A DNA stretch of 64,000 nucleotides from contig JAAUSO010000004.1 in NCBI GenBank assembly GCA_012033205.1, positions 41,279 to 105,278 on the forward strand, in the 5' to 3' direction. Below are positions 15,851-56,037 of this stretch, piece by piece. Position numbers and translations under genes: made by a program. The DNA comes from Richelia sp. SL_2_1 (lineage in GTDB: Bacteria > Cyanobacteriota > Cyanobacteriia > Cyanobacteriales > Nostocaceae). The notes beneath the pieces are model-generated. The model saw only the letters and a list, made by a program, of their open reading frames with translations, ran no database searches and was not told the DNA's origin. The stretch's first letter is position 1; each line of letters opens with the position of its first letter.

Positions 15851-15869
15851 TGAGGAACTTGTGAGGAAA
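15851..15869 (-). promoter_or_regulatory. TTCCTCACA direct-repeat operator upstream of parB
   Basis: In gene sense it reads TTTCCTCACAAGTTCCTCAT, two half-sites 11 bp apart, then 10 nt and TTAA. The gap to the parB start is about 98 nt. Confidence 0.75.
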
Positions 15870-16059
15870 GTAAGTAATATCAAATTTTTTAATAAAAAAA
15901 TCTGTTGTACAAGCATTTCTACTAAAAAACAGAAGCAATCGGGCAATTAATCAATTTAAATCCGAAATTGTGCATTTTGCCAAGATTTGGCAGTCTCTGC
16001 GATACCTGGGGCGGGCGTATCCATCGCACTATAAGGAGTCGTGTAAATAAATTGATAAA

Positions 16060-16615
16060 CTATGTTGAATTTCTAGGGCTAATTTGATAGTTCCATTCAC
16101 CATGAAAAGTATCTTTTGTGATGGCAATAGCATTGAAGTCTTCATCGGATACTTTAATACCTATTTGATACTGATTTGGGTCTACTTGTGCGTGAACTGT
16201 TAAGCCATGTTTTGTACTTGTATTACCAATCAAGCTTACAATCACCATTAAGCTATCCAAGGGTCGTCCTCGCCAGTTTTGAGAAATATGGCAGAATAAT
16301 CGATGCTCGATTCGATTCCATTTGCTAGTTCCAGGTGGAAAATGGCAAACGTGAACAGTTAAACCTGTTTGCGGAGCAAACTCCTGTAATTTCAGTTTCC
16401 AGAGGCGGCTACGGTAGCTATTACTACCTCCGCAATCGGCTGTAATCAGAAGATGCTGACTATCTGGATATAATGGTTTTCCCATATTGAACCACCAATT
16501 CCGTATTGTCTCGACTGCAAACGATGCTGTGTCGTGGTCAATACCTATACTTACCCAAGCATCAAATGTTGCTTTTACTCGGTCGATCGCAGGTTGACCA
16601 TATTTTCACCATCGC
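16060..16615 (-). pseudogene. ISAzo13-family transposase C-terminal fragment
   Basis: The frame reads KYGQPAIDRVKATFDAWVS, GIDHDTASFAVETIRNWW, then LLITADCGGSN, CHFPPGTSKWNRIEHRLF and FHGEWNYQISP, the DDE-containing C-terminal half of ISAzo13 (Rhodopirellula-type) transposases. The N-terminal half is missing; upstream at about 16616 an unrelated 73-codon frame ends with TGA. The element is dead. The downstream sequence GGAGTCGTGTAAATAAA (16035-16051) may be the old IS end. Confidence 0.8.
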
Positions 16616-16616
16616 A

Positions 16617-16827
16617 GCACTTTGTATTTCTCGGCAGCCACTGCTAGTGCTGAATTGAGTGCTTCATCAGCAGGGGCGTTTTCTTCAAACATCTGCATCC
16701 AAAGCTTTGTAGAACCTCTTTCCATTTGTTCTGTCATCGCTTCTAATCTCCTATGTAGTGATTCGATTACGGGAGCAATCGGTAATATAAAGACTATGCG
16801 GAAAACTCGGAAAATTCTCGATCTCAA
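16617..16827 (-). CDS. Short unrecognised ORF abutting the ISAzo13 remnant
   Basis: About 73 codons, ATG at 16827, with a hydrophobic start (FRVFRIVFILPIAPVIESL) and a helical charged remainder (RRLEAMTEQMERG..FEENAPADEALN). It ends exactly at the IS fragment boundary, so it may be the N-terminal part of a gene interrupted by the element, or a spurious ORF. No family is recognised. Confidence 0.3.
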
Positions 16828-17050
16828 CCCTTTAGTAAGTTGGCTGAGTAGGCACGTTAGTATACCTAAAGAAAATTTTTGACCAATGTTTAGTGTATGA
16901 CACTACACTCAATAGTATGTATAAAAATACAAGACGATTCATCAGCTTAATTATTCTACATGTTAATCTTTTTGTCAGATAAAATACAATCTTTTGCTGT
17001 TGCTCGGAGGAATTAAAAGATCAGGTTGTGGTGTCACGCACCAACCAGAG

Positions 17051-53237: not shown

Positions 53238-55538
53238 TTATTCGGATACATTCAGAACATGATTAACCGTTGTCAATAGTTCTTCTGCGGTATAAGGTTT
53301 GGGTAAAAATACTTCAGTTGGAATATGTCCCGCAACTTCTTTTTTGTTTGAGATAAATCCACTCATCGCGACAAATTTAACTTTTGAATTTAACTTTTTT
53401 AATATTTCAATAGCTTTTGCACCATCCATTAATGGCATCATCATATCTATCAAGACAAGCCGAATTTTTTTAATATGTTGAACATATACGGCGAGGGCAT
53501 CAATTCCATCAATAGCAGTTAATACCTGATAATTATATCTTTCTAAAGAAATTTTGGTCACATCGCGAATTAAAGCTTCATCATCAACAACTAAAATTAA
53601 TTCTCCATTTCCTCTGGGTATTTCACTAGATGAATTTTGTTGATAAATTTCAGTTGCTTGCGATGCTCTCAAGTAGACTTTGAAACAAGTTCCTTGTTTG
53701 TCACTATATACATTTACAAAACCACCGTAATTTTTGACAATGCCCATCACAGTAGAAAGACCTAAACCCGTGCCTTGACCTTTTTCTTTGGTAGTAAAAA
53801 ACGGCTCAAAAATACGATTTAAAATTTCTGGAGGAATACCAATACCTGTATCGCAGACTGTAATTACAATATAATTTCCTGTTTGGGCATCAGGATGCAT
53901 TTGAGCGTAGGTTTCGTCAATAGCAAGATTTTCCGCAGACATTGTTAGCGTACCACCATCAGGCATTGCATCTCGGGCATTAATACAGAGATTCATTAGT
54001 ATCTGATGTATCTGTGTGGCATCTCCGTAAATTGTCCACAATTCTTGAGGAAAATAGTTTTGGATTTCAATTGTTTTCGGGAATATTTCTCGAATAACTT
54101 GTTGAATTTCTTGTAATACGTGCCTGACTTGCAAGATAACAGACTTGTTTTCCACTCTTCGCGAGAAAGACAAAATTTGCTTGACTAAACTTGTCCCACG
54201 CTTAACGCTGGTTTGCAGCAAATCAATTAAGTATTTGGTTTGCTCGTCAGCATCAGGCACTTTTAAAGGCAAAAGTTGAGCAGTTGCTAATATTGGGGTA
54301 AAAATATTGTTAAGATCGTGAGCAACACCACTCGCTAAGGTCGCAATACTTTCCAAGCGTTGAGTGTGATAAACTTGCTTTTGTAACTCTTCTTTCTCCG
54401 TACAGATAGAATCATATCGCGCTTCTGCTTGCTGCTGCATTTCTAAAGATTGACGCTGCAACAACTCGAATTTTTCTGCCTGTAGCTGGTTGACTTTATT
54501 CTGTAGCAGTTCCACAACCCCGTACATTTCCACGGGATCTAACATATTTATAATTTGACTTTGGGTAATAATTCCTTTGAGTTCACCTTGTTCGTCAGCT
54601 ACTACCAATCGTCGTACTCGACGAGAACACATTTGCTGGTTTACTTTCAATAAAGAATCCAACGGATTTACCAAAATTAGCGGTGTACTCATAACCGTCT
54701 GCGCTTCAATCTCAAAACTCAATCCCAATTTCTGAAACTGAACGATATCTCGCTCGGTAATAACGCCGATAGGGGAAAGAGCGAGAGAGGGGGAGAGGGG
54801 GGGAGGGGGAGAAAATTTTGGTGTTGCTTCCTCGGTTTCCTCTACTTTGTTTATATTAAATTCCTTATCGTTTAATTCTTCTACAATTACTACACAACTA
54901 ATTCTATGTTGAGCCATCAATTGGTTTATATACTTTATTGATGCTGTTGGAGGTGCATGAACAACTTCTGTATTCATAACCTCAGCAACTTGGCGGAATC
55001 TCAGAAAGTCGCTGGGTTGCAAAGTCTGCCGCAATTTTGTTGTTGTCACCAATCCTACGAGAGAATTGTTTTCATCGACTACTGGCAGATGGCGAATTTG
55101 ATACCGACGCATTAATTTAATCGTAGTAAAAACGTCTTCAAATTCCTTTCTTTTCAAAGTAATTATTTGCTGACTCATTACCTCGGCTACAGTTACATCT
55201 TCGATTTTTTCACCATTAGAAATCAATTTTACCAAATCCCGTTCGGTAAAAATGCCTTGCAGTTGATTTTCTGAGACTACTAAAGCGCAGCTTATAGAAG
55301 ATGAAGTCAGTAAACTATTGTTATCATTGCTATCAGTTTCTGACATCTGACAACTAGTAACCCAATGCTGACTCATGAGGTGAATAACTTCTGCAATTTG
55401 CATCGAAGGATTCACTCTCAAAGGATGGGGATCGATAATTTTTTCTAAAGAAGTGAAATCAATCCCTGATTGATTTTGAGGTTTTTCTTGCAGGAAATTC
55501 TGGTAATTTTGAGCAGGTATTTTCATGGGAACTACCAC
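53238..55538 (-). CDS. CBS-domain hybrid histidine kinase
   Basis: 766 residues: four CBS motifs in two pairs (about 40-190 and 195-355), a short coiled coil (about 365-395), HisKA with phospho-acceptor His near 407 (ASGVAHDLNNIF), HATPase (about 510-620: NARDAMPDGG, DTGIGIPP, GQGTGLGLS), and a C-terminal receiver (about 640-762; VVDDEALIRD and acceptor Asp in VLIDMMMPLMDG). CBS domains bind adenyl nucleotides or similar ligands, so it could read energy charge and pass phosphate on. It has no DNA-binding output. It is a close paralogue of the broken kinase at 27249 but lacks the PAS domains. Its second CBS pair carries a Pro/Ser-rich low-complexity insert. The first Met MVVPM or MKIPAQ (55526) could be the start. 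Confidence 0.9.
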   Translation of the reverse strand: MVVPMKIPAQNYQNFLQEKPQNQSGIDFTSLEKIIDPHPLRVNPSMQIAEVIHLMSQHWVTSCQMSETDSNDNNSLLTSSSISCALVVSENQLQGIFTERDLVKLISNGEKIEDVTVAEVMSQQIITLKRKEFEDVFTTIKLMRRYQIRHLPVVDENNSLVGLVTTTKLRQTLQPSDFLRFRQVAEVMNTEVVHAPPTASIKYINQLMAQHRISCVVIVEELNDKEFNINKVEETEEATPKFSPPPPLSPSLALSPIGVITERDIVQFQKLGLSFEIEAQTVMSTPLILVNPLDSLLKVNQQMCSRRVRRLVVADEQGELKGIITQSQIINMLDPVEMYGVVELLQNKVNQLQAEKFELLQRQSLEMQQQAEARYDSICTEKEELQKQVYHTQRLESIATLASGVAHDLNNIFTPILATAQLLPLKVPDADEQTKYLIDLLQTSVKRGTSLVKQILSFSRRVENKSVILQVRHVLQEIQQVIREIFPKTIEIQNYFPQELWTIYGDATQIHQILMNLCINARDAMPDGGTLTMSAENLAIDETYAQMHPDAQTGNYIVITVCDTGIGIPPEILNRIFEPFFTTKEKGQGTGLGLSTVMGIVKNYGGFVNVYSDKQGTCFKVYLRASQATEIYQQNSSSEIPRGNGELILVVDDEALIRDVTKISLERYNYQVLTAIDGIDALAVYVQHIKKIRLVLIDMMMPLMDGAKAIEILKKLNSKVKFVAMSGFISNKKEVAGHIPTEVFLPKPYTAEELLTTVNHVLNVSE
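54770..54822. repeat. Purine-rich low-complexity insert inside CBS domain
   Basis: Runs of GGGGGAGAGGGGGGAGGGGG; coding strand reads FSPPPPLSPSLALSP in frame, at the same place where the paralogue at 27817 holds its STRR array. Confidence 0.7.
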
Positions 55539-55642
55539 TTGAATCGCAATATATTTTGATTTGTATCCAAAATATTAATATTTGGTATGAGTAATATTTG
55601 TAAATACATCTAAGGTATGAAGAAAGTGTAGAATTTAGATTA

Positions 55643-55682
55643 AGAGACGTAGCATTGCTACGTCTCTACATTTTTATTGACT
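55643..55682. repeat. GAGACGTAGCATTGCTACGTC palindrome, copy 7, with flank
   Basis: The palindrome is followed by TACATTTTTATTGACTGTT, shared with the copy at 58330. The atpA fragment begins immediately after this flank. Confidence 0.8.
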
Positions 55683-55910
55683 GTTCGTCGAGTTACGTAC
55701 CAAAACGGGCAAAAACTTCTACTTCTTGGAATTGGGAATAAGAAAGTCGTAAATCTCCAGCTACTGCCCGATAAGCACTTAACTAAGTTTTACCGCCAAC
55801 TGGCGAAACTGATTTACCTACATCAATTGCGGGGAAAATAGCTTTTTGAAATAAGTCTGGAGAGAGATATATTAGACCGTCTGTGATAGAAATTAAGTTG
55901 GTGGACGTGA
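55683..55910 (-). pseudogene. atpA: Duplicated internal fragment of N-ATPase atpA
   Basis: It is about 88-90% identical by eye to 61039-61264 in the same orientation and covers about residues 345-420 of the alpha subunit (DLFQKAIFPAIDVGKSVSR). A stop within the duplicated segment (RFGT-stop-LDEQ) marks it as a dead copy. It begins directly at the end of a dispersed palindrome. Confidence 0.85.
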
Positions 55911-56017
55911 TTGTGCTATCTTCAAAGACTTAATCACAAACCTCAGTAACATAACTTAAACGTTAAAGAATTATTAAATACTATATATAATGTATTTTTA
56001 TTTACAAAAGAATATTC

Positions 56018-56037
56018 TTCCTCACAAGTTTCTCACA
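56018..56037 (+). promoter_or_regulatory. TTCCTCACA direct-repeat operator upstream of small ORF/trypsin-like gene
   Basis: TTCCTCACAAGTTTCTCACA, then 10 nt and CTAACC on the plus strand, the same architecture as the minus-strand copies. Confidence 0.8.

What the first reader, a model, noticed from the sequence alone, without database searches (positions are those of the whole stretch)
15851..56037. A regulon: 13 copies of an 11-bp-spaced direct repeat upstream of a functionally linked gene set
TTCCTCACAAG is repeated at 11-bp spacing (TTCCTCACAAGTTCCTCA) and is followed after exactly 10 nt by CTAA or a close variant (TTAA, ATAA, GTAA). Sites: 15851, 23634, 25482, 27051, 34194, 34944, 39512, 43293, 48042, 51941, 53011 (inverted), 56018 and weakly 44092. 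Most lie 40-110 nt before a gene start: ParB, a membrane protein, M4 protease, exported protein, FAD oxidoreductase, hydrogenase operon, persulfide dioxygenase operon, OB-like lipoprotein, atpG. An 11-bp repeat period is what OmpR/PhoB-family regulators use (established); that one regulator controls all these genes is inference. I know of no named cyanobacterial box with this sequence. It would tie hydrogen, sulfur, protease and Na+/H+-ATPase functions into one response.
Basis: partly seen in the sequence, partly recalled or inferred. Interest (0 to 1): 0.93.

Follow-up and report, generated by a model that had tools for sequence, protein, structure and literature searches.

The report
Cyanobacterial anoxia regulon and its switch
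Many cyanobacteria carry the same 18-letter DNA signal in front of fermentation, hydrogenase and stress genes, and it is likely the docking site of one predicted regulator that would switch these genes on when oxygen runs out.

Summary
The repeats are real: 10 of 13 listed sites match at up to 3 mismatches (0.06 expected); two are weak and 44092 fails. Of 137 sites examined, 128 stand upstream of a co-oriented ORF (25% at random) and 4 lie inside one (71%). Downstream genes include pyruvate formate-lyase, PFOR, an AdhE operon, phosphofructokinase, PEP synthase, NiFe hydrogenase, HSP20 and universal stress proteins: an anaerobic fermentation kit. The likely regulator is an OmpR-type protein (REC-wHTH, often fused to Hpt and a histidine kinase). 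Of 150 genomes, all 77 with it have at least 2 sites; 6 of 73 without it do. Its recognition helix goes with the motif in 328 fresh genomes (both 7, helix only 2, motif only 2, neither 317). It often lies beside a site (18 of 30 loci), and regulon-type PEP synthase genes carry the box in 9 of 10 regulator-bearing genomes. Binding, direction of control and the anoxia signal are inferred. Nine paper searches of open-licence papers listed no earlier description.

The parts
15851..15868 (-). box, 0 mismatches, 97 nt before the ParB-like gene 14833-15753
23634..23651 (-). box, 2 mismatches, before a 271-aa gene without Pfam match (22720-23535)
25482..25499 (-). box, 0 mismatches, before the M4/M36-type metallopeptidase gene 23826-25418
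27051..27068 (-). box, 3 mismatches, before a 394-aa gene without Pfam match (25759-26943)
34194..34211 (-). box, 2 mismatches, before the FAD/NAD-binding gene 33700-34173
34944..34961 (-). weak box (5 mismatches) before a 188-aa gene 34330-34896
39512..39529 (-). weak box (4 mismatches), no near co-oriented ORF
43293..43310 (-). box, 3 mismatches, 22 nt before the hydrogenase operon
39762..43270 (-). NiFe hydrogenase operon: small subunit, 2-oxoacid-dehydrogenase-acyltransferase-like protein, large subunit, HycI-type protease
   Evidence: Pfam
48042..48059 (-). box, 1 mismatch, before the metallo-beta-lactamase-fold / rhodanese / sulfate permease genes 44737-47968
51941..51958 (-). box, 2 mismatches, before a 194-aa gene without Pfam match (51295-51879)
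53011..53028 (+). box, 2 mismatches, orphan: points away from atpG, no gene-sized ORF follows
56018..56035 (+). box, 1 mismatch, 452 nt before a trypsin-like protease gene 56488-57462 (a 50-aa ORF lies between)

Best explanation
The repeats are likely operators, two TTCCTCA half-sites in the -35 region of a predicted sigma-70-type promoter, that a predicted OmpR-family response regulator would bind to activate an anaerobic fermentation and survival regulon. Shown here: the 7-4-7 direct repeat with TAnnnT 11 nt further on; its place before genes; its recurrence before the same kinds of gene in many genomes; its co-occurrence and frequent co-location with one clade of REC-wHTH proteins that mostly share the helix EEAVRTHIKGLR. 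In many genomes this REC-wHTH unit is the N-terminus of one protein of about 1,000-1,900 aa; one scanned at 1,310 aa reads REC-wHTH-Hpt-REC-REC-PAS-GAF-PAS-HisKA-HATPase. Inferred and untested: that the PAS/GAF kinase part senses a redox, energy or oxygen signal; that phosphate passes by an internal receiver and the Hpt to the N-terminal receiver; that the phosphorylated dimer covers both half-sites head to tail and recruits RNA polymerase in place of a -35 contact; that formate-lyase, PFOR, AdhE, hydrogenase, PEP synthase, phosphofructokinase, HSP20 and universal stress proteins are then made when oxygen runs out.
For: Box against chance: 10 against 0.06 in the window; 49 against 3 for the reversed pattern in the genome. 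Placement: 128 of 137 before a co-oriented ORF against 25% at random; 4 of 137 inside an ORF against 71%. -10 hexamer: TA in 39 of 40 sites of this genome. Targets. Regulator: RR at E<=1e-90 against at least 2 sites in 150 genomes, 77/0/6/67; only 2 of 17 Trans_reg_C loci of this genome have a site at up to 2 mismatches within 1.5 kb, and they are the two members of this clade; 18 of 30 best RR loci in relatives have a site within 1.5 kb. Fresh test with the helix pattern, 328 genomes: 7/2/2/317. PEP synthase: box in 9 of 10 regulator-bearing genomes with the regulon-type gene; none in 17 loci of the other type; none in the 2 regulator-less genomes with the regulon-type gene. Plasmids of Chroococcidiopsis, Acaryochloris, Leptolyngbya and Kovacikia repeat the association.
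Against: No binding, start-site or expression data. The E<=1e-90 cut-off was chosen after seeing the data, and genomes are related. Genomes with at least 2 sites but no clade member found: G050, G113, G133, G202, G241. Helix-positive genomes with fewer than 2 sites: G176, G422. The L. boryana regulator has a variant helix (DDAIRAHIRGLR) although a 3-mismatch box is near. 12 of 30 RR loci have no near site. 45 of 91 downstream proteins of other genomes have no relative among the ORFs of this genome's six contigs. Site 53011 has no gene behind it. The C342 regulator of this genome is split over frames. Regulators of Chroococcidiopsis and L. boryana sit among metal-transport genes, so the signal may differ.
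Confidence: 0.72

Rival explanations
1. Same box and same regulator, but the signal is not lack of oxygen: it is low energy or over-reduction in the dark, metal stress or general dormancy, and fermentation genes are only part of the output.
For: Usp is the commonest downstream family (13 of 125); HSP20 genes have boxes; regulators of Chroococcidiopsis and L. boryana lie among metal-transport and glutathione reductase genes; no oxygen-binding domain was identified in the kinase part.
Against: Formate-lyase, PFOR and radical SAM enzymes behind the box are oxygen-sensitive (recalled) and make sense only with little oxygen.
Confidence: 0.17
2. Another DNA-binding protein reads the box (for example a different OmpR-type regulator), and the REC-wHTH clade is a target or a travelling companion.
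For: G050, G113, G133, G202 and G241 have at least 2 sites and no clade member found; in G030 and Acaryochloris the regulator gene itself has a box in front.
Against: Of 17 Trans_reg_C loci in this genome only the two clade members lie near a site at up to 2 mismatches; the helix pattern, and not only the gene family, goes with the motif.
Confidence: 0.07
3. The box is a promoter element of an alternative sigma factor, with TTCCTCA as its -35.
For: The second half-site and a TAnnnT hexamer have a fixed distance.
Against: Only 11 nt lie between the second half-site and TAnnnT, too short for a sigma-70-type -35/-10 spacer (recalled: about 17), and both half-sites are equally conserved.
Confidence: 0.03
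4. Iterons, parS-like sites or a mobile repeat of a plasmid.
For: In this genome all 28 hits at up to 2 mismatches lie on six contigs, one with a ParB-like gene behind a perfect box.
Against: Sites face genes, are spread over an 8.48-Mb contig in G010 (14 of 16 sites), and are kept upstream of orthologues.
Confidence: 0.01

Closest known systems
PhoB/OmpR-type activators and the Pho box (geometry recalled)
   Same: OmpR-family receiver plus winged helix; two 7-bp direct half-sites with a 4-bp spacer, then a -10 hexamer 10-11 nt further and no proper -35.
   Different: Other half-site (TTCCTCA), other gene set, and in many genomes the regulator is fused to Hpt and a histidine kinase in one chain.
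DosR dormancy regulon of mycobacteria
   Same: Hypoxia regulon with several universal stress proteins (passages of PMC11876180); HSP20, hydrogenase and phosphofructokinase in DosR-type regulons are recalled.
   Different: DosR is a NarL-family protein with a palindromic box (recalled); here the protein is OmpR-type with a direct repeat, so any likeness would be convergence.
SigE / cyAbrB2 control of hox and nifJ in Synechocystis
   Same: Hydrogenase and PFOR genes raised in microoxic conditions (abstract and passages of PMC11368403).
   Different: There a sigma factor and a nucleoid protein act, with LexA and Rre34 named as possible helpers; no box of this kind appears in the passages seen.
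Cyanobacterial OmpR-family regulators RpaA, RpaB, RppA, ManR, CopR
   Same: Same protein family; RpaA targets include hox genes in PCC 7942 (passage of PMC13421787); RpaA is among the solved relatives.
   Different: Other motifs (RppA AAMAWCTCYYWCCCC); none is given with this box in the passages seen.

Membership tests
OmpR/PhoB-type response regulator with direct-repeat operator | Receiver domain plus OmpR-type winged helix | tested here: met
   PF00072 and PF00486 in the C19 and C342 proteins and in the full orthologues scanned
OmpR/PhoB-type response regulator with direct-repeat operator | Tandem direct half-sites one helical turn (11 bp) apart, at a fixed distance from a -10 hexamer | tested here: met
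OmpR/PhoB-type response regulator with direct-repeat operator | The protein binds the half-sites and activates transcription | not testable with these tools
   only co-occurrence, co-location and helix covariation
DosR regulon | Regulator of the NarL/LuxR family (recalled) | tested here: not met
   the candidate is OmpR-type
DosR regulon | Universal stress proteins and hypoxia genes under one regulator | tested here: inconclusive
   gene kinds found behind the box; response to hypoxia not tested
SigE/cyAbrB2-type control of fermentation genes | hox and nifJ raised by SigE-RNA polymerase when cyAbrB2 is relieved | not tested
   no expression data; known from PMC11368403 passages
Iteron, parS or mobile repeat | Repeats on one replicon without relation to gene direction | tested here: not met
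   128 of 137 sites face a downstream ORF; spread over a large contig in G010

The most novel reading that the evidence does not exclude
Filamentous and several other cyanobacteria share an undescribed master switch for life without oxygen: a single-protein phosphorelay transcription factor (kinase, receivers, Hpt and DNA-binding domain in one chain) that reads the redox or oxygen state of the cell and, through one 18-bp box, turns on fermentation, hydrogen metabolism and dormancy proteins together: a cyanobacterial counterpart of DosR reached by convergence.
Probability: 0.6. Interest if true: 0.9.

Novelty: new variant of a known kind. Interest (0 to 1): 0.82.

Why it matters
Oxygen-producing cyanobacteria meet anoxia at night in mats, soils and sediments (established knowledge), and in the passages I saw the control of their fermentation and hydrogen genes is worked out in Synechocystis. 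A named box plus a named candidate regulator makes the question directly testable in heterocyst-forming strains, would give a promoter part induced by anoxia, and puts a testable function on the unannotated genes that share the box.

Tried and rejected
Plasmid-only control was my first reading, because the strong sites of this genome lie on six contigs; one search rejected it. Iterons, parS or a mobile repeat: rejected by orientation and orthologue conservation. A -35 element of another sigma factor: judged unlikely from the spacing. A blastn search of the plasmid collection with the metallopeptidase region found nothing. The genome-contig scan with the RR alignment used two generic peptides and returned many distant response regulators; of its 80 loci I scanned 17 (L127-L143) for the box and found only hits with 3-4 mismatches, in 4 of the 17. 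In one search the helix could not be read by my expression in 3 of 12 loci (G090, G034, G079), in the Kovacikia locus L210, and in 4 of the 6 genome-contig loci tried beside it (one of the 12 that were read, G113, has 3 sites and not the clade's helix). Paper searches listed no description of the box or regulon; one search listed papers holding the string TTCCTCA, which I did not open. I ran no structure prediction, no homologous-protein search and no covariance model.
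Full report
Observation. TTCCTCACAAGTTCCTCA at up to 3 mismatches occurs 10 times in the window against 0.06 expected from shuffles. The aligned sites show TTCCTCA-N4-TTCCTCA followed after 11 nt by TA. 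Eight of the ten are on the - strand.

Whole genome. The window is the right part of contig C80 and ends with it. At up to 3 mismatches the 7.55-Mb genome has 49 hits and the reversed pattern 3. All 28 hits at up to 2 mismatches lie on six contigs (C80 15, C152 4, C247 3, C303 3, C342 2, C19 1), together 341 kb or 4.5% of the genome; of the 21 hits at exactly 3 mismatches, 10 do. I read C80, C247 and C342 whole, and 60 of 88 kb of C152, 40 of 60 kb of C303 and 13 of 47 kb of C19. Of 40 sites there (up to 3 mismatches, G or C allowed at position 11), 39 have TA at positions 30-31 and 29 have T at position 35. A 7-4-7 direct repeat with a -10 about 10-11 nt further is the geometry of the Pho box (recalled).

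Position. Over these contigs, 60 stretches from relatives and 5 stretches of named plasmids there are 137 sites; 128 lie within 400 nt upstream of a co-oriented ORF (25% of 5,000 random positions do) and 4 lie inside an ORF (71% at random). A profile of 126 of them shows T-C-A of both half-sites nearly invariant. The relatives' stretches were chosen because they hold a site found with a pattern that included TA, so TA there is partly by construction; the position relative to genes is not.

What the sites precede. In this genome: the NiFe hydrogenase operon, the metallo-beta-lactamase-fold/rhodanese/sulfate-permease genes, a metallopeptidase and a ParB-like protein; formate-lyase, phosphofructokinase, an HlyD-type protein, peptidoglycan-binding and outer-membrane proteins; pyruvate kinase, a PEP-synthase-like enzyme and a Usp; HSP20 twice and a phosphoribosyltransferase; a radical SAM 4Fe-4S protein followed in the same direction by an AdhE-type and an ADP-forming acyl-CoA synthetase-type gene. 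Taking the first downstream protein of each site over all genomes read (125 of 126 scanned), the most frequent Pfam families include Usp 13, PEP synthase 7, radical SAM 6, 4Fe-4S domains 6, PFOR 4, phosphofructokinase 4, formate-lyase 3 and Complex1_51K 2. Of 91 such proteins outside this genome, 46 have a relative among the 283 ORFs of the six contigs; 26 of these 46 best relatives are themselves behind a site, although only 35 of 283 ORFs are. The other 45 have none.

Conservation upstream of one orthologue. I searched the PEP synthase of C247 in 30 family members, 16 without and 14 with the regulator. The regulon-type gene (78-82% identical) has a site at up to 2 mismatches, 81-240 nt before the aligned start, in 9 of 10 regulator-bearing genomes; G068 has only a 5-mismatch remnant. 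A second PEP synthase type (71-76%) has no site at up to 3 mismatches in 17 of 17 loci: 12 from regulator-less genomes and 5 from regulator-bearing ones, among them second copies in G048 and G061, whose first copies have the box. Two regulator-less genomes (G034, G079) have the regulon-type gene and no site at up to 3 mismatches. G050, G088 and G055 have no match at 1e-200.

The regulator. This genome has 17 Trans_reg_C loci. Only those on C19 and C342 have a site at up to 2 mismatches within 1.5 kb (one other locus has a 3-mismatch hit). The two are paralogues, 72% identical, and a Usp gene stands beside each, with a 2-mismatch site on C342 and a 4-mismatch site on C19. Crossing the C19 protein with the motif (at up to 2 mismatches including TA) in 150 relatives gives, for RR at E<=1e-90 against at least 2 sites, 77 both, 0 RR only, 6 motif only, 67 neither. 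The reversed motif gives 5 matches in the 150 genomes. The cut-off was chosen after seeing the data and genomes are related, so the Fisher P of 4e-36 should not be taken literally. Within the family 16 of 90 genomes have no RR at that cut-off, spread over several genera, and 15 of these 16 have 0 or 1 site (G050 has 4). Of the 30 best RR loci, 18 have a site at up to 3 mismatches within 1.5 kb or to the contig end, 12 have none. In Acaryochloris and G030 a site stands about 170 nt before the regulator gene itself.

Recognition helix. Most clade members read EEAVRTHIKGLR, or nearly so, in the presumed recognition helix (assignment recalled from OmpR-family structures). Nearest relatives from genomes with 0-1 site that could be read differ there: EETIRAHIKGLR (G125), ENTLRAHIKGLR (G098), EETVTAHIKGLR (G138), EEAVTTQIKGLR (G053), EDTIKSYIKSLR (G044). 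Of the six motif-only genomes, G108 and G134 have EEAVRTHIKGLR and G120 EEAIRTHIKGLR in a more distant protein; G113 does not, and G050 and G133 have no wHTH match. Chroococcidiopsis reads EDAVRTHIKTLR and L. boryana DDAIRAHIRGLR, so the helix is not invariant among box-bearing relatives. As a fresh test I searched a degenerate DNA pattern for EA-V/I-RTH-I/V-K in 386 genomes of the phylum and crossed it with at least 2 sites: 29 both, 2 helix only (G176, G422), 7 motif only, 348 neither. In the 328 genomes not used before it is 7/2/2/317, Fisher P 1.7e-11. Two of the seven fresh positives (G195, G392) belong to another order. Of the 7 motif-only genomes, G046, G020, G068 and G106 do have the RR at E<=1e-90 and were missed by the pattern; G133, G202 and G241 have none at that level.

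Named relatives. RR relatives above 60% identity lie on plasmids of Chroococcidiopsis sp. CCNUC1, Kovacikia minuta, Acaryochloris sp. 'Moss Beach' and two Leptolyngbya boryana strains (5 of 21 records). I fetched about 40 kb around four of them; each region has sites: one mismatch before a Usp in Chroococcidiopsis (L207:22409+), three mismatches before a Usp in L. boryana (L209:22445+), a divergent pair with 2-3 mismatches before the regulator in Acaryochloris (L208:19801-/19833+), and sites 7-12 kb away in Kovacikia (L210). In Acaryochloris the surroundings are PEP synthase, an ATPase operon with a cation:proton antiporter, hoxE, a NuoF-family protein, hoxU, a NiFe hydrogenase subunit, hyp genes, Usp and CBS proteins. 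In Chroococcidiopsis and L. boryana the surroundings are metal transport, Usp, FAD oxidoreductase or reductase and alpha-glucan phosphorylase genes. A second Kovacikia region has two sites in the 1.5 kb before a formate-lyase gene, each first facing a smaller ORF (L211).

Architecture. A full orthologue of 1,310 aa reads REC-wHTH-Hpt-REC-REC-PAS-GAF-PAS-HisKA-HATPase in one chain; another of 977 aa lacks the GAF, one of 1,924 aa has extra PAS and receiver domains, and the Acaryochloris protein of 708 aa ends in GGDEF and has no kinase. Thirteen fused orthologues show no membrane-like segment (highest 19-residue hydropathy mean 1.70). In this genome the C342 copy is split over frames (378 and 870 aa, the latter without an ATPase domain) and the C19 copy is a free REC-wHTH. 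By sequence the closest solved proteins are OmpR-family regulators (DrrD, MtrA, RegX3, RpaA).

Mechanism. Most likely: a change in redox, energy or oxygen state activates the soluble kinase part; phosphate passes by receiver and Hpt to the N-terminal receiver; the dimer binds both TTCCTCA half-sites head to tail and recruits RNA polymerase at a promoter that has only a -10 hexamer. Every one of these steps is inferred. The oxygen-sensitive enzymes among the targets (sensitivity recalled) make anoxia the likeliest signal; the metal-gene surroundings in two relatives count against being sure of it.

Known work. In Synechocystis, hox and nifJ respond to microoxic conditions through SigE and cyAbrB2, with LexA and Rre34 as possible helpers (PMC11368403, abstract and passages). 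A 2026 review of cyanobacterial redox signalling names OmpR-family regulators with other motifs, and none with this box in the passages seen (PMC13421787). Usp genes are part of the mycobacterial hypoxia regulon (PMC11876180, passages). Nine searches, over open-licence papers only, listed no description of this box or regulon.

Noticed in passing
window 41609-42436 (-): A 2-oxoacid-dehydrogenase-acyltransferase-like protein (PF00198) is encoded between the small and large hydrogenase subunits, an unusual partner for a NiFe hydrogenase; the best plasmid relatives of the large subunit are from Paraburkholderia, Burkholderia, Pandoraea, Streptomyces and Rhodococcus.
   Followed up: partly
window 44737-46490 (-): A sulfate permease is split over two adjacent ORFs (PF00916 positions 1-274 and 283-380): a frameshift, a decayed gene or a sequencing error.
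   Followed up: no
window 53238-55538 (-) and 27249-30314 (+): Two hybrid histidine kinases with CBS domains lie among the box genes; they could be further sensors of the same response.
   Followed up: no
window 52037-52942 and 60751-62298 (-): ATP synthase gamma and alpha-type genes lie about 8 kb apart with unrelated genes between; the rest of the operon would lie beyond the contig end.
   Followed up: no
window 18391-21936 (-): A NACHT-HEAT protein with a C-terminal NCC-H domain, a STAND-type architecture, beside a lactate/malate dehydrogenase gene (17215-18216).
   Followed up: no
L277 and nine other regulator loci (L272-L281): A small ORF of about 118-136 aa often follows the fused regulator; the one scanned is a lone receiver domain (L277:856-1242), perhaps a further relay partner.
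   Followed up: partly
fused regulators, residues 139 and 171 (numbering of L277): Two cysteines in the DNA-binding half are kept in 13 of 13 fused orthologues, while the Chroococcidiopsis and L. boryana proteins have Y at the second place; a redox switch is conceivable.
   Followed up: no
C247:5839-6081 of this genome and relatives: A gene for a small protein of about 80 aa with its own box stands divergent from the PEP synthase gene here and in several relatives; function unknown.
   Followed up: partly
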